Positions 6,841-17,477 of a DNA stretch of 64,000 nucleotides are shown here, in pieces (the first letter of the stretch is position 1; every line of letters begins with the position of its first letter). Position numbers and translations under genes: made by a program. The stretch spans positions 124,001 through 188,000 of the forward strand of contig NZ_JAHLDU010000007.1 in assembly GCF_018861905.1 (NCBI RefSeq), written 5' to 3'. The DNA comes from Clostridium sp. DSM 17811. GTDB taxonomy: Bacteria; Bacillota; Clostridia; Clostridiales; Clostridiaceae. The notes under the pieces were generated by a model that was not told the DNA's origin, did not search any database, and was given only the letters and a program-made list of their open reading frames with translations.

Positions 6841-7105
6841 AATTTATCACCAATCATTTCATTATTTGAATTTTAACAAGCAGTATTTACATAATGCCTT
6901 ATAAAAAACCATAATACAAGTAAAACACCCTAAAATGTCATTTTTATGTCATGAACGGAAGTTAAGCGCATCCTAAAGTTTATTTACTAGTGGGTTTTAT
7001 TTGATTACAATGAAAAAATTGTATATTGTTTTATGTCACAGTTTATATTGAGCTGAATAACCTATGGTAGCAGGTTAAACAATGAAACTGCTAGGAGGTA
7101 AAATT

Positions 7106-7357
7106 ATGTATAGTTATTGGCAGTCTGATATGAGCGAAGATGATGAATATAAAAAGCATGGTAGGCATGAATATAATAAATGTGCGAAATATGAATGTTG
7201 TAAGCATCAGAAACCTGAATGCGAAAAGTATAAAAACCCTGAATGCAATAAGTGGGACAAATATGAATGTGAAAAGTGTGAGAAACATGAATGTGAAAAA
7301 TGCAAGAAACATGAGTATAATAAGTGTGAAAAACATGAATGTAACAAGTGCGGTTGA
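7106..7357 (+). CDS. small Cys/His/Lys/Glu repeat protein
   Basis: An 83-residue protein that I cannot assign to a named family. From about residue 20 on it is a degenerate repeat around ECxKCEKHECxKC, with 12 cysteines, many His, and almost every other residue Lys or Glu. There is no signal peptide or membrane segment. The ATG at 7106 has a perfect AGGAGG 7 bases upstream, so it is preferred to the in-frame ATG at 7082. It stands alone between a long A+T-rich leader and its own terminator. The Cys and His density suggests metal binding or disulfide cross-linking, for instance in a spore coat; both are inference. Confidence 0.75.
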   Translation: MYSYWQSDMSEDDEYKKHGRHEYNKCAKYECCKHQKPECEKYKNPECNKWDKYECEKCEKHECEKCKKHEYNKCEKHECNKCG

Positions 7358-7439
7358 TCTTATTTAAAAGTTGGACAAGATATAAGGGAATTCATAAATA
7401 AAGCTATTATTTTATTTGTGAATTATTGATATAGATATC

Positions 7440-7476
7440 AAATGAGCTGCCTTACAAAAGGCAGCTCATTTTTATG
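7440..7476. terminator. terminator after the Cys-rich gene
   Basis: AAATGAGCTGCCTT, a four-base loop and AAGGCAGCTCATTTTT make a 14-base-pair stem with a T tail. Confidence 0.85.
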
Positions 7477-7569
7477 AATTATAAGTTTTGAATATTATTA
7501 ATGAAAAAAATAACCATATGCTTTATAATATAAGTAGATTATATAAGATCTAAAGAAAGGAAAAACCTC

Positions 7570-7641
7570 ATGTTTGAAGAAATATATGGGAGTGCAGTAT
7601 CATTAATAGATATAGATCAGGAGTGGATAGATTTTGAATAA
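7570..7641 (+). CDS. 23-residue leader peptide ahead of the jetA-like gene
   Basis: A short ORF (start MFEEIYGSAVSLI, end QEWIDFE) with AAAGGA upstream of its ATG. Its last codons contain the AGGAG ribosome binding site of the next gene, and its stop (TAA, 7639-7641) overlaps that gene's TTG start at 7634. This geometry suggests a coupled leader peptide. It could instead be the surviving tail of a deleted gene. No homology is recognised. Confidence 0.4.
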   Translation: MFEEIYGSAVSLIDIDQEWIDFE

Positions 7642-9166
7642 TGAATTTAATTATATGGATGAGATAATAAGTGAACATAATGAAAGAATGCAGAACCTAA
7701 AAAAATATTATCCTTTTTTTAAGATTAGGGAGATATCTTTAGATTTATTTAATGAAGGTAAATATAATTTTATTGATATGGGGTACATAGTAGTAGCAAC
7801 ATTAAGATTATTTATAGAAGAAAATAATTTTAATGATATAGGGGTTTCTTTTGAAAAGTTTTCTGATTTTACTACAGAAATTCTAAAACGGGATTATAAT
7901 TTGTACCTAGATGAAAAAGAGAATAGTTTACTTGTAAATTATATTTTCGAGAAAATTATAAATGATGGAAAACCTTTTTCTTATAATTATTTTGATCCTG
8001 TGGAAAAGAAACAAATGTCTTCTAGGATCAAACTAATTGAATCCAAAATATCAGATAATACAATACGGTATTACATAACATCTGAGGCTATTGAGTTTTA
8101 CCTTGATACAAAGGAAATAAAGGATGAAAGTAAAATAAGTATTCAACAGATACTGCTCTCTAAAATGATTGAGTCTAAGAATTTTAAAGGTGGTATTGAA
8201 GTTGTAAAACGTATTAATAATGAAGTTAGTAAACTAATGCAAAGAAAGAATGAGATCTTGAATATCTTGAGTTACAACGTTACTGAGGGAATAAAAGAGG
8301 CAGATGAACTTTTTAATAATAGCATGAAGTGGTTTGATGAGGAACAAGGTCTATTTGATAAGAATAAGAAACTAATAGAAATTGCTCTTGAGAGAATGGA
8401 GGAAAATGAAAGTCACGATACTGAGGATTTCTTGAAAAATAGGGAATATATTTATAATCTAGAAACTGAGATTAAACGAGCTATTTCAAAACATAGTGCA
8501 CTTTTAAATTCTTCTACTGACCTTAAGATAAAATCGGATGAAATTATTAAAAAGGTGACATTAAATAAACTTAGAATGTCTTTTGACTTTAAAACTGTTT
8601 ATCAAAGGACTCTTCTTTTGGATAATGTTGGACTTCTAGCTTATCTTATGAATCCGCTTTTAAAGATAAAGTTTAATAAGACTTTTAATTTAAAAAATAC
8701 AGATGAGCTTTTAACCTACAGACCTAATAATGAGGAAGACATTGAAGAGGTTACAACTTTTGAAGAAACAGAATATATATCACTTGACGATATAGAGGAT
8801 GAAAGAATAGCTTCTAATTTCATAATATTTATGAATTTATTAATGAAATTCCTTTTGGAGAAAGATCAATTTTCCTTAAGAGAGTTTAATTTGTATTTAG
8901 CAGGTAAGTTTAAAGGAGATATCTTAAAAAATGGAGATTATTATTCCTTTATACTACATATTGCGCAAAAAAATTATTATGATTTATCTAAGCTTGACGT
9001 CGACGAAAAAACTATCTTTGATAAAATAATAATTAATTTATTAACACCTGAAAATCGTTATGGGCTTATAGGTCTTAAATTTAGAGTAATCCCAATGCCT
9101 GAGGATGTAATAGAAATATCATCTTTATTTAAAATTACCAATATAAAATTTGAAAGGGTGAAGTAA
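7634..9166 (+). CDS. Wadjet JetA-like (MukF/kleisin-type) protein
   Basis: A 510-residue, mainly helical and acidic protein, first of three coupled genes. I place it in the JetA-like family (NCBI Wadjet JetA family, formerly a DUF) from its size, its helical content, and its position ahead of a 236-residue protein and a 1471-residue SMC-like ATPase; no short diagnostic motif proves it. A long helical stretch (about residues 180-310, SKMIESKNF...KKVTLNKLRMSF) fits a kleisin-like middle region. TTG at 7634 is chosen because AGGAG lies 9 bases upstream and an in-frame TAG (7628-7630) blocks longer forms; the next ATG is at 7655. The product would be the bridging subunit of an SMC complex on DNA. 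Confidence 0.7.
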   Translation: MNNEFNYMDEIISEHNERMQNLKKYYPFFKIREISLDLFNEGKYNFIDMGYIVVATLRLFIEENNFNDIGVSFEKFSDFTTEILKRDYNLYLDEKENSLLVNYIFEKIINDGKPFSYNYFDPVEKKQMSSRIKLIESKISDNTIRYYITSEAIEFYLDTKEIKDESKISIQQILLSKMIESKNFKGGIEVVKRINNEVSKLMQRKNEILNILSYNVTEGIKEADELFNNSMKWFDEEQGLFDKNKKLIEIALERMEENESHDTEDFLKNREYIYNLETEIKRAISKHSALLNSSTDLKIKSDEIIKKVTLNKLRMSFDFKTVYQRTLLLDNVGLLAYLMNPLLKIKFNKTFNLKNTDELLTYRPNNEEDIEEVTTFEETEYISLDDIEDERIASNFIIFMNLLMKFLLEKDQFSLREFNLYLAGKFKGDILKNGDYYSFILHIAQKNYYDLSKLDVDEKTIFDKIIINLLTPENRYGLIGLKFRVIPMPEDVIEISSLFKITNIKFERVK

Positions 9167-9167
9167 A

Positions 9168-9878
9168 TTGGATAACTGGAATATGGAGAAAGCCCTTGAG
9201 CTATTTGCAAAGCTTATTACTGGCGAGAATGTAAGCAGTAGCGAAAATACAGACTTATACGAGGAATACAATTCAAACATAGAAATGTATAATATATTTG
9301 GTAGCATGATTGAAAAGCTAAATTTAACTTTATATCAATATAAGGATGCTTTATTTATTACGGCTGGAGAAAAGAATAATGTGTTTGGTTATACTAATGA
9401 AGAATTAAGGAAGATGTTAGGACTTAAGGTTAATAAAGAATTATACATGTGTTATTTTATTATTTATAATATTATTACACTGTTTTATAAAGATTCTTCA
9501 AGTTACACATTTCAAGAATATATAAAAAGTGAGGATGTTCTGCGAAGCGTTGATGGATCACTTTCAAGTATTATCAGTAAATTGGATGTAATAGTGAAAA
9601 ACGAACTTGAGGAGAATAGTTTTAATGTCATAGCTCTTTTGTGGGATGAACTCCCTTTAACTCACTCGAATGATTTATCAGTAAATGCTAGAGCATATAA
9701 AAACTCGAAGCTAGGGTATATAAAAATTGTATTCAATTTTCTAAAAGAGCAGAACCTTTTTATTGAGGTAGAGGAACGATATTATGCGAACGTTAGATTT
9801 AAGGCACTTATAGAAAATTATTTTGAAGACTTCAGAGGTAGGCTTTACGCGATAATGTCAGAAGGAGGACTTAATTAA
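9168..9878 (+). CDS. Wadjet JetB-like (MukE/KITE-type) protein
   Basis: A 236-residue helical protein between the JetA-like and JetC-like genes. It starts at TTG (9168), one base after the JetA-like stop, behind AAAGGGTG, and its stop overlaps the next ATG by one base (TAATG). The C-terminal third (about residues 170-225: RAYKNSKLGYIKIVFNFLKEQN then a short beta pair) reads like a winged-helix domain, as expected for the small KITE subunit of MukBEF/Jet complexes. Assignment rests on size, order and this pattern; sequence similarity to characterised JetB cannot be claimed from sight. Confidence 0.65.
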   Translation: MDNWNMEKALELFAKLITGENVSSSENTDLYEEYNSNIEMYNIFGSMIEKLNLTLYQYKDALFITAGEKNNVFGYTNEELRKMLGLKVNKELYMCYFIIYNIITLFYKDSSSYTFQEYIKSEDVLRSVDGSLSSIISKLDVIVKNELEENSFNVIALLWDELPLTHSNDLSVNARAYKNSKLGYIKIVFNFLKEQNLFIEVEERYYANVRFKALIENYFEDFRGRLYAIMSEGGLN

Positions 9879-12800
9879 TGCCGCAAATAAACAGGATAAG
9901 AATAAACAATGTTAAATATAATAATGGTACTCAAACATATGATGATTTTAAAATGGAACTTTCTTGTAGCAATACTTTGTATGATCTTGCAAATGGTGGG
10001 GGTAAAAGCCTTTTAATGTTATTGCTTATGCAAAATCTTATACCTAACTGTCATTTAGATGACAAACAACCTATAGAAAAGCTCTTTAGGGGGAAAGATT
10101 CTAGTAGTGTTATTCACTCACTAATTGAATGGCGATTAGATGATGGAGATAAATCAGGATATAAGTATATGACTACAGGTTTTTGTGCTAGGAAAGGTAC
10201 AGAAACATCTGGAAATATCGAAAATAAAAAAGACACAACATCTTTTGACTATTTTAATTACTGTATATTTTATAATACTTATAATGAAAATGATATAAAT
10301 AATTTGCCACTTCAAGATAATAAAGAAAGAATAACCTATGGTGGCTTAAAAAAACAATTAAGGACTCTTCAAAGTAATAATTCTTTCGTTGTGGTTTCGG
10401 ATATCTTTGAGGATAGAAAGGGAGAATATCAAAGGTTTATTAGTGAACATGGTTTATACGAAAGCGAATGGGAAATTATTAGGGGGATAAATAAGACTGA
10501 GGGTCATGTGAGAGGTTACTTTGAAGAAAATTATAGGACATCAAGAAAGATTGTCGAGGATTTACTTATAGAAAAGATTATTCAAAAAGCATTTATGGCT
10601 AAAACTAGTAAGGTAAATGATGAAGAAGAAATGGCAAAAACACTTTTGGATATCAAGGATAAAATCATAGAGTTATCTAAAAAGAAAAAAGAAATCTCAA
10701 ATTATGATAGACAGGCGGGTGTGGTTAACGATTTTATTATTAGGACAAAAACACTTGTTAATGTATATGATGAAAAGGGAAAAATTGAAGATTCTATTGT
10801 AAAAACTTACAATACTCTTGGAAACAATGTAAAAAGTAAATACGAAGAACTTAATTTAATAGAGGCAGAAACAAATAATATTGATAAAGAAGATAAGAAA
10901 ACAGAAAAAGACATTCAAACTATAAAGCTACAAATTATGAAAAATGAGTTAAATACAACTCAAGGTGAGCTTAAAGATTCACAAGGTAAATTTGAAAATG
11001 TTAAATTTAAAGTTGACAATGCTTATAATGAAATTAACCTTAGACAAGTTAAGAATTATTTTGTAGATTTTCTAGAAAATAAAGGCAAATATTCTGAAAT
11101 AAAAGAGGTAATTGATAATATATTTAAAGCCAATGAAACGTTAACATTAGACTTAAATAGACTAGCTTATAACAAAAAAATTAGAGATGAGATTAAACTT
11201 AAGGGGTTAAATAATAAGTTAACTGAATCATTAAGTAAAGTTTATGACTTGTCAAGTAAAGTAAAAGAATTTGTTAGGTTAGAAAGAGATCTTGATAATA
11301 AAATAGCTGTCTCTGAAAGCAACATATTACAATCAAAAGAAAGACTTAAATCACTAAAAGAAAAGGTTAAAGTTCTTAGAAGTAAGCTTAACATTATGAT
11401 CATAGGTGATATAGATGCTGATATTAAAAAAATTGGGCTGGATAGATCACAAACCATTCTAAAGATAAAAGATAATAAATATATATTTGATTCTTTAATG
11501 TTAAAAAATAGTAGCTACAAAATTGATATTGCTAAAAATGAAGAAAAAACAACTTCAATTCAAGGCAAAATAGTAGAATATAATGATTTAATGCAAAAAT
11601 ATGACATAGATAAAATTAAGGTCAATAAATTATTAGAAGTTTATGAGGCTCAGGATGTTTTATCTTTAAGTAATAGTCTAGAAATTAAATATAAAGAGTT
11701 GCTTAGAGCAATACTTGCACAGGAGCAGGAATTACAACAATCATTAGATTATTATACTCAGTTAGATGAGGATAAACCAATGCCCACAACTAAAGAAATA
11801 TTAAAAGTAAAAAAATATATTAATAGGAACTATAATGAAGACGGGATCTTGGGCATAGAATATCTTAAAGACCTCTCAATAGAGGAAAAAGAAACTATTT
11901 TAAGTAAGATACCTTTCTTGCCGTACTCTATTATTGTAACTTATAATCTTAATAAACTTCTTAAGGACGAAAAGTTTAGAGATTATGATTTTGGTAACTA
12001 TGCCATTCCAATTATTAGCTTAGAGACTATTAAAGATGGGCTTGACTTTAATATTAATGGTTTAGATTTTGTCGTAAAAGATAGGTCCAAATTTATAAAT
12101 TCAGATAAAATAAAACAGGAAAAAGATAAAATAGGGAGAGAAATATCAGAGATAAGAACTAACCTGGATCTTCTTAAAAGAAATGAAGAAACCTTAAAAA
12201 TAGATAATACATATATTAAAGAGTTCAAGTTTTCTTATGATAATAAAATCGATGTGATTAAAGAGAATCGTACTAAATTAAAGTCTGAAAAGCTTTCATT
12301 AGAAAATGAAAGGATAGTTTGTAGTAAAGTTATAGATGGACTTGAACTCAAGATGAAAAATATCAATTTAGAAAATATAGATTTAGAAAATAAGTTAACT
12401 ATTTTGGAGAAGGATTTAAGGAATATTAACGAAGTAAAGATTGATTTAGATAACTTGGATTTGGAAGAAAATAAACTTCAGAAATTTGTAGAAAGTTTAA
12501 ATTCTTTAAACTTGAAGCATATGGAAATTAAAAAACAAGTGATAACGGAGGAAAGTAAGCAAAAAAATGAACTTGAGGTAAATAGCCACTTAAAGGTAAA
12601 AATAGATGAAGTAAATGATGAATGGATTAAAATGTATAAAACATATTATAATAACGATAAATATGAAGAATTAAACATAACTGATGATGAAATAGATTCG
12701 AAATTTAGAGGAAGTAAAAAAGCATTAGAAGAAAAAAATTCAGATATAAGGGACAAAGATCAACTCTTACAAAATTACCAAAGTAATATGGATAAAGATA

Positions 12801-14293
12801 GGAGCGAAATTGACAATAGAGAATATTCTATAGATAAGCTTTATGAACTTAAAAATAGAAATGAGATTTTAGTAACAAAGCAAGAAGGATTAAAACAATT
12901 AAAAGAAGAACATAAAATATTAAAAGAAAAGCAAGAAGTGATTAATAAGGATGTTCAAAAGTATACATTAGCCAGGAGTAATATTTGTGGGAAAATTGAA
13001 CTATTAGAAGATAGGTTTTCAAAGGATTTTGGACAATATGTAGCTATTGGAATTGAAGTCTTTAAATTTCAACAATTTGAAGAGGACAATACTCGCAAAA
13101 GAGAAAAACTTGCTTTGAAAAAAGCAGAACTTTTAACATTGCAAATTAAGATTAATAAAGTTATTGAGAAATTAAAAGCTATTATAGTTAATATTGAAGT
13201 AGTTTTAAGATCTAGTAATATTTCTAAAGATAAAACAAATGAGATGATAGACGACACTCAAGATATAAAAAGTTATTATGAAAGTTTAGAAAAGGAATTT
13301 GATAAAGTTTGCATTAAAGAAAAAAACAGTAGAGCAAATTTCGAAAGTAATAAAGAAAAAAACATAAAAACTCTTAAAGAAATGGGAGCTTTTGAAATAG
13401 CCGAAGAATTTTTAAGGAGTGTTAATGCTCCTGTATTAACTAGTGAGTGCAAAGTGCTTATAGAAAATTTAGAAAGTATTAAAGAGCTTATATTTATTCA
13501 AAAGGGAAAAATAGAGAATGATATTAAGGATATGGAGAAAATAAAAGATAATTTTCAAAATCAATGTCTCCAACGTTGCACAGATGTGAAAACAGAGCTT
13601 GATAGATTACCACGTTTATCAAGATTAAATTTGAATAATGAGATAATACAAATGGTTAGTCTTCAGATACCATATGTTAAGGAAGAACAGCAAAAGTTCC
13701 ATATGTCGTTGTACATAGAAGATACAATAAGAAATGTTGATAATATGAATGATAATTTAGACAAAATAAAATATATTAAAAATCAATTAGCTCTTAAAAG
13801 GCTGTTTTCTGTTATTGTAACAGACATGAATAAAATAGTTTTAAAACTTTACAAAAGAGAGCAGATATCAGAGCAAAGTAAAATATTAGAATATGAGCAG
13901 GCAGTTGGTAGTACAGGCCAGTCACAAGGAATATATATTCAATTTTTAATATCCATAATTAATTATATTAAAAACATAAATTCCTTTAATACTGATAATA
14001 ATAAATTAAGAAAAACCATATTTATAGATAATCCATTTGGAGCAGCTAAGGACATATATATTTGGGAACCTATATTTGAGTTTCTAAAAATAAATAATGT
14101 GCAGCTCATTGTGCCAGCCCGTGGTGCTACTCCTGCTATATCTGGAAGGTTTGATGTGAATTATATTCTAGGTCAAAAACTTATTGGTAATAAGCAGCAG
14201 ACGGTAGTAATGCAGGTAAGAAGTCAGGTCTGCGTGGAGCAGGTTGAATTTAAGAAAATAGAGCATGAGCAGATGGGATTTGAATTATCATAA
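9878..14293 (+). CDS. JetC-like SMC/MukB-type coiled-coil ATPase
   Basis: A 1471-residue SMC-like protein. The N-terminal head has the Walker A motif NGGGKSLLMLLL (residues 39-50). About residues 250-1300 are Lys/Glu/Leu/Asn-rich coiled coil, broken near 600-740 by a hinge-like globular region (VTYNLNKLL...DYDFGNYAIPIISLETI). The C-terminal head has a signature-like GSTGQSQGIYIQFL (about 1345) and Walker B TIFIDNPFGAA (about 1381-1391), then LIVPARGAT. An ABC-type head engaging DNA as a loop extruder is the known role of SMC, MukB and JetC proteins. After the Walker B Asp there is Asn where Glu is usual. Its ATG overlaps the JetB-like stop. No fourth (JetD nuclease) gene follows; a strong terminator lies 40 bases downstream. 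Confidence 0.8.
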   Translation: MPQINRIRINNVKYNNGTQTYDDFKMELSCSNTLYDLANGGGKSLLMLLLMQNLIPNCHLDDKQPIEKLFRGKDSSSVIHSLIEWRLDDGDKSGYKYMTTGFCARKGTETSGNIENKKDTTSFDYFNYCIFYNTYNENDINNLPLQDNKERITYGGLKKQLRTLQSNNSFVVVSDIFEDRKGEYQRFISEHGLYESEWEIIRGINKTEGHVRGYFEENYRTSRKIVEDLLIEKIIQKAFMAKTSKVNDEEEMAKTLLDIKDKIIELSKKKKEISNYDRQAGVVNDFIIRTKTLVNVYDEKGKIEDSIVKTYNTLGNNVKSKYEELNLIEAETNNIDKEDKKTEKDIQTIKLQIMKNELNTTQGELKDSQGKFENVKFKVDNAYNEINLRQVKNYFVDFLENKGKYSEIKEVIDNIFKANETLTLDLNRLAYNKKIRDEIKLKGLNNKLTESLSKVYDLSSKVKEFVRLERDLDNKIAVSESNILQSKERLKSLKEKVKVLRSKLNIMIIGDIDADIKKIGLDRSQTILKIKDNKYIFDSLMLKNSSYKIDIAKNEEKTTSIQGKIVEYNDLMQKYDIDKIKVNKLLEVYEAQDVLSLSNSLEIKYKELLRAILAQEQELQQSLDYYTQLDEDKPMPTTKEILKVKKYINRNYNEDGILGIEYLKDLSIEEKETILSKIPFLPYSIIVTYNLNKLLKDEKFRDYDFGNYAIPIISLETIKDGLDFNINGLDFVVKDRSKFINSDKIKQEKDKIGREISEIRTNLDLLKRNEETLKIDNTYIKEFKFSYDNKIDVIKENRTKLKSEKLSLENERIVCSKVIDGLELKMKNINLENIDLENKLTILEKDLRNINEVKIDLDNLDLEENKLQKFVESLNSLNLKHMEIKKQVITEESKQKNELEVNSHLKVKIDEVNDEWIKMYKTYYNNDKYEELNITDDEIDSKFRGSKKALEEKNSDIRDKDQLLQNYQSNMDKDRSEIDNREYSIDKLYELKNRNEILVTKQEGLKQLKEEHKILKEKQEVINKDVQKYTLARSNICGKIELLEDRFSKDFGQYVAIGIEVFKFQQFEEDNTRKREKLALKKAELLTLQIKINKVIEKLKAIIVNIEVVLRSSNISKDKTNEMIDDTQDIKSYYESLEKEFDKVCIKEKNSRANFESNKEKNIKTLKEMGAFEIAEEFLRSVNAPVLTSECKVLIENLESIKELIFIQKGKIENDIKDMEKIKDNFQNQCLQRCTDVKTELDRLPRLSRLNLNNEIIQMVSLQIPYVKEEQQKFHMSLYIEDTIRNVDNMNDNLDKIKYIKNQLALKRLFSVIVTDMNKIVLKLYKREQISEQSKILEYEQAVGSTGQSQGIYIQFLISIINYIKNINSFNTDNNKLRKTIFIDNPFGAAKDIYIWEPIFEFLKINNVQLIVPARGATPAISGRFDVNYILGQKLIGNKQQTVVMQVRSQVCVEQVEFKKIEHEQMGFELS

Positions 14294-14334
14294 AAAACCA
14301 AAACACATAGATTTATAAATCATAGCAGGTCAGA

Positions 14335-14361
14335 GAAAAAAGAGCCAATAGGCTCTTTTTT
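14335..14361 (+). terminator. terminator of the SMC-like operon
   Basis: AAAAAAGAGCC, loop AATA, GGCTCTTTTTT: a textbook rho-independent terminator that closes the three-gene operon without any jetD. Confidence 0.9.
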
Positions 14362-14615
14362 GTTGTATAAATAGATATTTATTGAAAAACTATAGTTGTG
14401 GCTTTGTGCCAAATTTGTTCTAATTAATGGTAATGAACGGTATTTTATTAGCCTGAGGTTACTTTTGGTGCACATGCTAGTAAAACCGATAAGTAAGATT
14501 TTAATAATTATAAAAAAAATGAAAAAGTTTACAAAAAGATATTGCAGAAAGTGCAAATTAGATGTAAAATTAACTTATTAAAGTGAGTTTAAAAAGTATT
14601 TCGGTTTATATTTAA

Positions 14616-14830: not shown

Positions 14831-15478
14831 ATGAAATTATTTATTGATACAGCAAATGTTGCAGATATTCGTGAGGCGAGTGACATGGGTGTTATTTGTG
14901 GTGTAACTACTAACCCGTCTCTAATTGCAAAAGAAGGAAGAGACTTTAATGAGGTTATAAAAGAAATAGCATCTATTGTAGACGGACCTATAAGTGGGGA
15001 AGTTATTTCTTTAGATTCAAAAGGTATGATAAAGGAAGGAAGAGAAATAGCTAAAATACATAAAAATATGATTGTTAAAATTCCAATGACGCAGGATGGT
15101 CTTAAGGCTGTAAAAGTACTTTCGAAAGAAGGAATAAAAACAAATGTAACGTTAATATTTTCAGCAGGGCAAGCTTTACTTGCTGCAAGAGCAGGAGCAT
15201 CATATGTAAGTCCCTTCATAGGGAGACTTGATGATATAAATGCTAATGCTATGGATTTAATAAGAACTATTGTTACAATATTTAAAGTACATAGAATAGA
15301 TACTGAAATAATTGCGGCTAGCATAAGAACTCCAATGCATGTCACAGATGCAGCAGTTGCAGGGGCACATATTGCTACAGTACCACTTAAAATTATTAAA
15401 CAAATGATAAAACATCCATTGACAGATGCTGGGATAGAAAAATTTGCAAAAGATTGGAAAGAAACTTTTGGTAAATAA
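14831..15478 (+). CDS. transaldolase (FSA/TalC type)
   Basis: A 215-residue small transaldolase or fructose-6-phosphate aldolase-like enzyme. It begins [18 protein letters not shown] with [15 protein letters not shown] (about 28-42); the Schiff-base Lys lies in MIVKIPMT (about 84), and the C-terminus has ASIRTPMHV. It moves a dihydroxyacetone unit between sugar phosphates in the non-oxidative pentose phosphate pathway. An AGGAGG lies 9 bases before the ATG. It is followed 16 bases later by transketolase, so the pair forms one pathway unit. Confidence 0.93.
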
Positions 15479-15494
15479 TAAGGAGGTGCACATA

Positions 15495-17477
15495 ATGAAT
15501 GTAGATAATTTAGCTATTAATACTATAAGAGTACTTTCAGCAGAAGCGGTGCAAAAAGCAAATTCTGGTCATCCAGGGTTACCACTTGGATGTGCGACCA
15601 TGGCTTATACTCTATGGTCAAAGCAAATGAAACATAATCCTAAAAATTCAAAATGGGAAGATAGAGATAGATTTGTACTATCAGCAGGTCATGGGTCTAT
15701 GCTTTTATACTCACTTTTAAACGTATTTGGATATGATTTAAGTGTTGAAGATATAAAAAATTTCAGACAGTTTGGAAGTAAAACACCAGGACATCCAGAA
15801 TATAAACATACAGACGGAGTTGAGACAACTACAGGACCACTTGGACAAGGCATTTGTAATGCAGTAGGTATGGCTATTTCTGAAAGCTATCTTGCAGAGA
15901 AATTTAACAAACAAAATTTTAAGGTTATAGATCATTATACATATACTATAGCTGGAGATGGTTGTTTAATGGAAGGAATTTCAAGTGAGGCATCTTCCCT
16001 TGCAGGAACACTAGGGCTTGGAAAACTTATAATGATGTATGATTCTAATAATATATCGATTGAAGGAAGTACCGATATTGCTTTTAGAGAAGATGTCGCT
16101 AAAAGGTATGAAGCTTATGGTTGGCAGGTTATAAAAGTAGCTGATGGAAACAACACAGAAGAAATAAATGCTGCTATAATTACGGCTAAAAAGGAAGATA
16201 AAAAGCCAACAATTATAATTGTAAAGAATATAATAGGATATGGTTGTCTTGCTAAGCAAGGAAAAGCCAGCGCACATGGGGAACCACTTGGAGAAGAAAA
16301 TATTATTGCATTAAAAGAAAATATAGGATGGAATTATGATCCTTTTACTGTTCCAGAAGAAGTTAAAAAACAAATGGAAAGTTTTAATAAAGTAGCAGCA
16401 TCTAAAGAAGTAACTTGGAACAAGTTATTTGAAGATTATAAATCGACTTACCCAGAACTTGCAAAAGAGTGGGAACTTTGGTTTAGTGGTAAAATAGCCA
16501 CTGATTTATTAGAGAATGAAAGTTTTTGGAGTTTCGATAAACCAATGGCAACAAGACAAGCATCCGGAGTGCTTATTAACAGAATAGCAAAGCTTGTACC
16601 AAACATAATTGGAGGCTCAGCAGATCTTGCTCCTTCAAACAAAACATATATGAAAGATAGAGGAGATTTCTCAGCTGAGGATAGATCTGGAGCAAACATG
16701 CATTTTGGAGTAAGAGAACATGCAATGGCTGCTATCGCCAATGGAATATATCTTCATGGTGGTTTAAAAGTATTTGTATCTACATTCTTCGTATTTAGTG
16801 ATTACATGAAGGGGGCCATGAGACTTAGCGCAATAATGAAATTACCAATAACTTATGTACTTACTCACGATAGTATTGGAGTTGGTGAAGATGGACCAAC
16901 TCATGAACCTATTGAACAATTAGCTGCTTTAAGAGCTATGCCAAATATGGTAGTGTTTAGACCAGCTGATTCTAAGGAAACAGCTGCAGGTTGGTACCTA
17001 GCAATAGCAAAATCAGAAGGACCAGTGTCTCTTGTATTAACAAGACAAACTTTGCCGTTATATAATGGCTCAAGTAAGGAAGCACTTAATGGCGGATATA
17101 TTCTTAAGAATTCTGTAAAAGAAACACCCGATGTAATATTAATTGCTTCCGGCTCAGAGGTTGAACTAATATTTAAGGCATCAGATGAATTAAAGAGAAA
17201 GGGAATAGATGCCAGAGTAGTAAGTATGCCTTCCTTTGAGTTGTTTGATAGACAAAGTAAAGAATATAAGGAAAAGATATTGCCTGGCAATGTAAGAGCA
17301 AGAGTTGCAGTAGAAGCAGCATCTTCATTTGGTTGGCACAAATATGTGGGACTTGATGGAGCCGTAATTTCAATTGATCACTTCGGTGCATCAGGGAAGG
17401 CAGAAGTTTTATTTGAAGAGTTTGGATTTACAGTTAATAATGTGGTTGACACTGTATTGAGATTGAAGAATAAATAA
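15495..17477 (+). CDS. tkt: transketolase
   Basis: A 660-residue thiamine-diphosphate enzyme moving two-carbon units between pentose and hexose phosphates. The ThDP-binding segment GDGCLMEG (about 155-162) with its Asn-containing continuation, the N-terminal catalytic His region SGHPGLPLG, the conserved GPLGQGICNAVG and the pyrimidine-domain motif REHAMAAIANG are all present, followed by the C-terminal domain. The start at 15495 follows AAGGAGGTG; an in-frame ATG at 15444 lies inside transaldolase. Length is normal for the family. Confidence 0.96.
   Translation: MNVDNLAINTIRVLSAEAVQKANSGHPGLPLGCATMAYTLWSKQMKHNPKNSKWEDRDRFVLSAGHGSMLLYSLLNVFGYDLSVEDIKNFRQFGSKTPGHPEYKHTDGVETTTGPLGQGICNAVGMAISESYLAEKFNKQNFKVIDHYTYTIAGDGCLMEGISSEASSLAGTLGLGKLIMMYDSNNISIEGSTDIAFREDVAKRYEAYGWQVIKVADGNNTEEINAAIITAKKEDKKPTIIIVKNIIGYGCLAKQGKASAHGEPLGEENIIALKENIGWNYDPFTVPEEVKKQMESFNKVAASKEVTWNKLFEDYKSTYPELAKEWELWFSGKIATDLLENESFWSFDKPMATRQASGVLINRIAKLVPNIIGGSADLAPSNKTYMKDRGDFSAEDRSGANMHFGVREHAMAAIANGIYLHGGLKVFVSTFFVFSDYMKGAMRLSAIMKLPITYVLTHDSIGVGEDGPTHEPIEQLAALRAMPNMVVFRPADSKETAAGWYLAIAKSEGPVSLVLTRQTLPLYNGSSKEALNGGYILKNSVKETPDVILIASGSEVELIFKASDELKRKGIDARVVSMPSFELFDRQSKEYKEKILPGNVRARVAVEAASSFGWHKYVGLDGAVISIDHFGASGKAEVLFEEFGFTVNNVVDTVLRLKNK

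What the first reader, a model, noticed from the sequence alone, without database searches (positions are those of the whole stretch)
7570..14361. A JetABC-like SMC operon without JetD
Three genes with the sizes and order of Wadjet JetA (510), JetB (236) and JetC (1471 residues) are coupled by a 1-base gap and a TAATG overlap, and terminated 40 bases after jetC. Established knowledge: Wadjet plasmid defence needs JetD, the TOPRIM-type nuclease that cuts extruded small circles. No ORF here resembles it, and terminators flank the set on both sides. This may be a three-subunit SMC machine that works without cleavage, recruits an unlinked nuclease, or serves the chromosome in a MukBEF-like way. 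It is the best candidate in the window for an undescribed system.
Basis: partly seen in the sequence, partly recalled or inferred. Interest (0 to 1): 0.87.

Follow-up and report, generated by a model that had tools for sequence, protein, structure and literature searches.

The report
Wadjet operon that lost its nuclease
A bacterial anti-plasmid machine has lost its DNA-cutting subunit by a clean deletion while its DNA-looping motor stays under strong natural selection, which suggests that a defence system is being turned into, or also serves as, a chromosome-handling machine.

Summary
Window 7634-14293 is an intact jetABC operon of Wadjet type III (PADLOC JetA3/JetB3/JetC3, E 2e-95 or lower). 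JetD profiles find no JetD in the genome. JetD was lost: three relatives carry it as the FIRST gene (D-A-B-C), and window 7570-7641 is an in-frame 23-codon scar of it (first 8 and last 15 codons). Two other species (assemblies of 2 and 4 contigs) share the scar at the same chromosomal site, so the deletion is ancestral. Since then jetABC has evolved with dN/dS 0.08-0.20, as in JetD-bearing relatives, all genes full length: the SMC core is selected without its nuclease. In this Clostridium clade 7 of 10 loci lack JetD, through at least four losses. In another GTDB family 50 of 397 genomes hold related JetABC; a JetD profile finds nothing in those 50 loci, 21 of which have recR upstream. Best reading: a nuclease-free, MukBEF/MksBEF-like SMC motor, probably acting on the chromosome; function untested. 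JetD-free Wadjet-group SMCs are a known kind; this repeated type III conversion was not found in the papers searched.

The parts
7440..7472 (+). stem-loop upstream of the operon, terminator-like
   Evidence: RNA fold of 7436-7478 -21.8 kcal/mol, z -7.3; coordinates; not listed by the consensus scan
7501..7529 (+). promoter-like site; the leader region resembles that of the JetD-bearing C. frigoris locus
   Evidence: 10 of 12 consensus matches; 52 sites in the region against 45.7 expected, so chance level; upstream DNA side by side
7570..7641 (+). jetD scar: 23-codon in-frame ORF MFEEIYGS + AVSLIDIDQEWIDFE, the start and end of jetD, about 361 codons missing against C. frigoris; its end overlaps the jetA start
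   Evidence: a profile of the three relatives' JetD finds the ORF holding it (E 0.0023 among 2300 window ORFs), a broader JetD profile does not
7634..9166 (+). jetA, kleisin-type subunit, 510 aa, TTG start
   Evidence: PADLOC JetA3 PDLC00560 E 6e-182
9168..9878 (+). jetB, KITE-type subunit, 236 aa, TTG start
   Evidence: PADLOC JetB3 PDLC00571 E 2e-95; Pfam DUF6063 E 3e-46
9878..14293 (+). jetC, SMC-like ATPase, 1471 aa
   Evidence: PADLOC JetC3 PDLC00581 1464.6 bits over residues 1-1470
9986..10009 (+). jetC Walker A LANGGGKS
13898..13936 (+). jetC ABC signature region QAVGSTGQSQGIY
14012..14041 (+). jetC Walker B KTIFIDNPFG
14336..14361 (+). stem-loop after jetC, terminator-like
   Evidence: RNA fold of 14325-14372 -16.0 kcal/mol, z -4.1; coordinates; not listed by the consensus scan

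Best explanation
The operon descends from a type III Wadjet operon with gene order jetD-jetA-jetB-jetC. In an ancestor of at least three species one in-frame deletion removed nearly all of jetD and left its leader, its start and its last codons joined to jetA (shown). jetABC has been kept intact by purifying selection ever since (shown), so the SMC core must do something useful without JetD (follows). Most likely JetA (kleisin), JetB (KITE) and JetC (SMC ATPase) form a loop-extruding motor that acts on the chromosome beside Smc-ScpAB, in the manner of MukBEF or P. aeruginosa MksBEF (inferred). Without JetD it can no longer destroy small plasmids (inferred).
For: Profiles. jetD in first place in C. 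frigoris, C. vincentii and C. bowmanii. Same scar in own, G003 and G006, and same chromosomal site as the JetD-bearing C. frigoris. No JetD3 match in any of the 7 JetD-less genomes of the clade. dN/dS within the scar-bearing trio: JetA 0.116-0.155, JetB 0.079-0.116, JetC 0.186-0.195, all nine bootstrap upper bounds at or below 0.26; JetD-bearing pair vinc-bow 0.128, 0.086, 0.199. ATPase motifs kept. At least four losses in the clade. Related clade without detected JetD, recR upstream in 21 of 50 loci, JetABC and recR distances correlated (r 0.64, 0 of 2000 permutations, n 20). The own genome also has ScpA.
Against: No experiment. In C. glutamicum MksBEFG, with its nuclease, has no effect on chromosome folding (PMC7083940, passages). 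The genes are patchy: 50 of 397 genomes of the other family and 10 of 17 genomes of the own genus with any JetA3 match, unlike essential housekeeping genes; 29 of 50 loci there show no recR within the stretch read. Synonymous divergence of jetABC in the trio (0.14-0.21) is higher than in flanking deacetylase, dinB-like and dnaK genes (0.06-0.16), so some exchange cannot be excluded. The Clostridium loci sit at several chromosomal places.
Confidence: 0.62

Rival explanations
1. JetABC still acts on extrachromosomal DNA but without cutting: it compacts, silences or missegregates plasmids or phage genomes, in the way that Smc5/6 silences some viral genomes.
For: Wadjet recognises circular DNA, and loss of MksB raises plasmid copy number in C. 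glutamicum, where the nuclease is present (PMC10586767, PMC10123090, PMC7083940, passages); Smc5/6 silencing is mentioned in PMC7617805 (passage). The Clostridium jet loci occupy several chromosomal places, as defence genes do.
Against: 21 of 50 loci of the other family have recR upstream, and JetABC follows recR in descent. G003, which bears the scar, holds a separate 25,039-base contig with conjugation genes, though one case proves little.
Confidence: 0.17
2. JetABC recruits an unlinked, unrelated nuclease or other effector in trans and still defends; JetD was replaced, not simply lost.
For: In 34 of 44 loci of the other family with enough sequence a TPR/NTPase-like gene lies downstream of jetC, so partners other than JetD may exist.
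Against: No JetD3 match in any of the 7 JetD-less Clostridium genomes. No gene beside jetABC that own, G003 and G006 all share and C. frigoris lacks. The TPR profile finds nothing in the window or in the 45 Clostridiaceae loci scanned. The rest of the own genome was not searched for other nucleases.
Confidence: 0.12
3. A dying remnant: after loss of JetD the other genes are useless and have not yet decayed.
For: [quoted passage not shown] subtilis (PMC10586767, passage).
Against: Synonymous divergence of 0.14-0.21 since the loss, dN/dS 0.08-0.20, genes full length in three species. Repeated losses with intact cores. A whole related clade without detected JetD.
Confidence: 0.04

Closest known systems
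Wadjet type III (JetABCD) of the relatives C. frigoris, C. vincentii, C. bowmanii
   Same: Orthologous JetA, JetB, JetC (72-95% identity); in C. frigoris a like leader region and the same chromosomal site
   Different: jetD, the first gene there, is reduced to a 23-codon scar here
MksBEF of Pseudomonas aeruginosa (JetD/MksG-free condensin)
   Same: SMC, kleisin and KITE without a nuclease; [quoted passage not shown]
   Different: The passages that I saw describe no type III case; here the loss is recent enough to leave a scar, and repeated
MukBEF of E. coli
   Same: Three-subunit Wadjet-group SMC without JetD (PMC7617805, passages)
   Different: No MukB, MukF or MukE Pfam match here (no positive control run); the host also has ScpA
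MksBEFG (Wadjet type I) of Corynebacterium glutamicum
   Same: SMC core of the same group, beside Smc-ScpAB
   Different: Keeps the nuclease MksG and acts on plasmids, not on chromosome folding (PMC7083940, PMC10123090, passages)

Membership tests
Wadjet type III | JetA3, JetB3 and JetC3 proteins in one operon | tested here: met
   PADLOC PDLC00560, PDLC00571, PDLC00581 over full length
Wadjet type III | JetD nuclease in the operon or genome | tested here: not met
   no PF09983 or PDLC00592 match in the own genome; only a scar at 7570-7641
Wadjet type III | gene order D-A-B-C | tested here: not met
   A-B-C intact and jetD present only as a scar in first place; JetD lies before JetA in the JetD-bearing relatives
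Wadjet type III | restricts plasmid transformation | not testable with these tools
   needs experiment
JetD-free Wadjet-group SMC (MksBEF of P. aeruginosa type) | intact kleisin, KITE and SMC genes without JetD/MksG | tested here: met
   kleisin and KITE roles rest on profile names, no structure was obtained
JetD-free Wadjet-group SMC (MksBEF of P. aeruginosa type) | core kept by selection without the nuclease | tested here: met
   dN/dS 0.08-0.20 after the loss
JetD-free Wadjet-group SMC (MksBEF of P. aeruginosa type) | acts in chromosome organisation | not testable with these tools
   needs Hi-C or segregation assays
MukBEF proper | matches MukB, MukF and MukE families | tested here: not met
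   no Muk family among Pfam matches at E <= 0.1
Smc-ScpAB | matches SMC/ScpA/ScpB families | tested here: not met
   no such Pfam match at E <= 0.1; ScpA lies elsewhere, G000:C3

The most novel reading that the evidence does not exclude
Type III JetABC without JetD, with a TPR/NTPase-like partner in one family and often embedded there in the dnaX-ybaB-recR replication and repair cluster, is an undescribed second condensin system of clostridial bacteria; plasmid-defence SMCs turn into chromosome machines repeatedly by deletion of the nuclease, and the window's species group shows one such step not long after it happened.
Probability: 0.4. Interest if true: 0.82.

Novelty: new variant of a known kind. 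Interest (0 to 1): 0.63.

Why it matters
How MukBEF and MksBEF arose, and why many bacteria keep a second condensin, is open; a published proposal is that a Wadjet defence system lost its nuclease. Here such losses are recent enough to leave scars, they happened at least four times in one small clade, and a JetD-bearing species with the operon at the same locus is at hand. This turns the proposal into something that can be tested by comparing closely related SMC cores with and without their nuclease. It also warns annotators: a 'Wadjet' label on these genes does not by itself mean plasmid defence.

Tried and rejected
Considered and rejected: sequencing or assembly artefact (the same scar in three genomes, two of them in 2 and 4 contigs); an unlinked JetD; JetD gained rather than lost inside the Clostridium clade (a C-terminal jetD piece in MAG ES-bin-163, 80% identical to C. 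vincentii over 50 residues, the 23-codon scars, and short tails in others); plasmid-borne origin (no JetC match in 72,556 plasmid records at E <= 1e-30). The JetD tree did not settle the deep ancestry of the Clostridium JetD, so that the related clade of the other family ever had JetD is inferred from outgroups only. The search for changes clustered at a JetD-binding surface gave nothing firm: no clustering in JetA or JetB (188 and 707 of 1000 random draws as high), mild in JetC (20 of 1000). PDB sequence searches found no relative of JetC (E <= 0.1) or JetA (E <= 1). Identity of three contigs of G003 and G006 as known plasmids: the first 20,000 bases of each gave no match in two cases and one 81-base match in the third.

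Full report
WHAT IS THERE. Three co-directional ORFs of 510, 236 and 1471 aa lie at 7634-9166, 9168-9878 and 9878-14293. They match PADLOC profiles for Wadjet JetA3 (E 6e-182), JetB3 (2e-95) and JetC3 (1464.6 bits) from end to end; JetB also matches Pfam DUF6063. That the '3' in these names stands for type III is my reading of the names. Stem-loops lie on both sides; the consensus terminator scan did not list them.

WHERE JetD WENT. In three named relatives, C. frigoris, C. vincentii and C. bowmanii, the gene directly before jetA encodes 377-384 aa that match JetD3 (E 3e-54 to 1e-57) and Pfam JetD_C (E 4e-10 to 2e-9). Its end overlaps the jetA start in the first two and stops 13 bases before it in the third, so the order is D-A-B-C. 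Its own dN/dS is 0.17-0.21, so it is a living gene there. At the same place the window has an ORF of 23 codons, 7570-7641, MFEEIYGSAVSLIDIDQEWIDFE: the first 8 residues equal the start of C. frigoris JetD and the last 15 match its end with three differences. About 361 codons are gone, in frame. A profile of the three relatives' JetD finds the ORF that holds this scar (E 0.0023 among 2300 window ORFs); a broader JetD profile does not find it. No JetD is found elsewhere in the genome with JetD_C (0 matches at E <= 1) or JetD3 (0 at E <= 0.01).

AN OLD, SHARED DELETION. Two further genomes, G003 (2 contigs) and G006 (4 contigs), hold the same 23-codon scar with 6, 7 and 10 differences in 72 bases between the pairs. 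In own, G003, G006 and the JetD-bearing C. frigoris the operon sits between the same deacetylase gene and, further on, the same dinB-like gene (dinB is named by recalled sequence likeness); in own and G003 other genes stand between jetC and dinB. The four form a clade with the scar-bearing three together (100/100 and 99/99 support; 100/100 and 99.6/100). One deletion before these species split explains this.

SELECTION AFTER THE LOSS. All divergence among own, G003 and G006 happened after the deletion. NG86 dN/dS is 0.116-0.155 for JetA, 0.079-0.116 for JetB and 0.186-0.195 for JetC at dS 0.14-0.21; the highest of nine bootstrap upper bounds is 0.260. The JetD-bearing pair C. vincentii - C. 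bowmanii gives 0.128, 0.086 and 0.199. Flanking genes in the trio give 0.33 (deacetylase), 0.17-0.19 (dinB-like) and 0.016 (dnaK, own-G006 only). All three jet genes are full length in all three species. Walker A, signature and Walker B regions are kept; one position beside Walker B differs in G003. Against this stands that dS of jetABC is higher than that of the flanks (0.06-0.16), so exchange between relatives cannot be excluded.

REPEATED LOSS. In 206 genomes of the same GTDB family, JetA3 matches at 49 places in 44 genomes; two belong to one locus cut by contig ends, so 48 loci. Ten belong to the window's subfamily: 3 have jetD, 7 do not. None of the 7 genomes has a JetD3 match anywhere at E <= 0.001, though two are incomplete. 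Of the other 38 loci 35 have JetD beside JetA (33, 2 by coordinates), 2 lack it (G056:C6, G108) and 1 is cut by a contig end (G195). In two of the 33, L070 and L078, a later test found no single JetD ORF of 250 aa. The contrast of 3 to 7 with 35 to 2 gives p 6e-5 without regard to phylogeny. The scars differ: shared 23-codon scar in the trio; 50 residues of the JetD C-terminus in MAG ES-bin-163; a few codons of tail in C. akagii and G011; none seen in C. lacusfryxellense. With the tree (G011 sister to C. bowmanii, 100/100; C. akagii with the MAG, 100/99) and JetD ancestral to the clade, four losses follow. A count without G011 on starred branches forces three changes of any kind, which alone could be one gain and two losses; the scars speak for losses. 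In the large FastTree C. akagii and the MAG branch in succession (0.736), which with losses only would make five.

A RELATED CLADE WITHOUT JetD. In family f24 50 of 397 genomes, in 40 of 334 genera, hold a JetA of this kind, all at E below 1e-100. I read all 50 loci (48). A JetD profile that finds 15 of 15 held-out controls (loci first picked by a related profile) finds 0 of 50 at E < 0.001; in two loci (L108, L172) fewer than 200 bases before jetA are held. Genome-wide absence of JetD was tested only for two of these genomes. recR lies upstream in 21 of 50, in 18 of them 29-368 bases before the jetA match, with ybaB in all 21 and dnaX in 20. For 20 of them recR and JetABC distances correlate (r 0.64, 0 of 2000 permutations), as for vertical descent. 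JetC is an open frame of 1457-1528 aa in 47 of 48 loci that hold it, the other being cut by a contig end; JetA is short in L187 (411 aa). On the tree of 62 loci the f24 loci and the Clostridium clade group apart from five outgroup loci. Of 44 loci with at least 2.5 kb beyond jetC, 34 have a large protein with weak TPR and AAA-like matches downstream: 18 of 19 recR-linked, 21-322 bases away, and 16 of 25 others, 38-2390 bases away, only four of these within 120; 8 of the loci supplied the profile. Off recR the link is therefore looser. The window and the other Clostridiaceae loci scanned do not have it.

HOW IT PROBABLY WORKS. Shown: ancestral jetD in the Clostridium clade, its deletion, and selection on the rest. 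Inferred: JetA, JetB and JetC form an SMC motor that extrudes DNA loops, as proposed for the type I core; without JetD it does not cut. That its substrate is the chromosome is suggested by the recR neighbourhood and vertical descent in the related clade and by published JetD-free relatives. Rivals are nuclease-free plasmid control, a replaced effector, and slow decay; the last is hard to hold against the data.

WHAT IS KNOWN. I read passages and one section of PMC10586767: MksBEF of P. [quoted passage not shown] most work so far was on type I. Passages and one section of PMC7617805: several Wadjet-group members lack MksG/JetD; their list (Data S1) was not open to me and may contain these loci. 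Passages of PMC7083940 and PMC10123090: in C. glutamicum the complex with its nuclease acts on plasmids and not on chromosome folding. Passages of PMC12287153: a clostridial Wadjet hinders plasmid transfer. One passage of PMC10512200. No paper found describes repeated JetD loss in type III operons or their place beside recR (searches: open-access library only; of the papers listed I opened six).

VERDICT. A real and interesting case: a new variant of a known kind (JetD-free Wadjet-group SMC), recently and repeatedly converted, with a function that can now be tested.

Noticed in passing
L143 10820-13882 and the like gene in 34 other loci of L109, L143-L190: In another GTDB family a large protein with weak TPR repeats at the N-terminus and an AAA/NTPase-like C-terminus lies downstream of jetC in 35 of 50 loci, also away from recR; a candidate fourth subunit, no Pfam match or mostly weak ones in the 4 scanned.
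   Followed up: partly
window 14012-14041; other JetC loci: Walker B reads D-N, where most ABC and SMC ATPases have D-E (recalled), in 60 of 63 JetC (one D-A, two not matched by the pattern), and the signature is GSTGQSQG in 57 of 63, JetD-bearing species included.
   Followed up: partly
L068 (G108), L062 (G056), L110 (G531), L111 (G475): JetA3 loci outside this subfamily that also show no JetD beside jetA; G108 is 93% identical in DNA over 6.8 kb to G104, which has jetD.
   Followed up: partly
L098, L103 (G003 second contig, 25,039 bases); L099-L101 (G006): Scar-bearing G003 has a separate 25 kb contig with TrbL, coupling-protein and TraG-type ATPase matches, a size that a complete Wadjet would be expected to restrict; G006 has further contigs of 77, 46 and 45 kb of unsettled nature.
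   Followed up: partly
window 7082-7357: A 91-aa Cys/His/Lys-rich repeat ORF (KHECEKCKKHE...) just upstream of the operon, no Pfam match.
   Followed up: no
window 15444-17477; L055 11870-13861; L109 reverse strand, after the TPR gene: A transketolase-like gene (by eye) lies downstream of jetC in the window, in G003 and in a genome of another family; chance or old gene order.
   Followed up: no
L007 4900-4970: In C. lacusfryxellense no jetD scar is seen; jetA is preceded by an ATG after a jetD-like ribosome-binding stretch, possibly a jetD-jetA start fusion.
   Followed up: no
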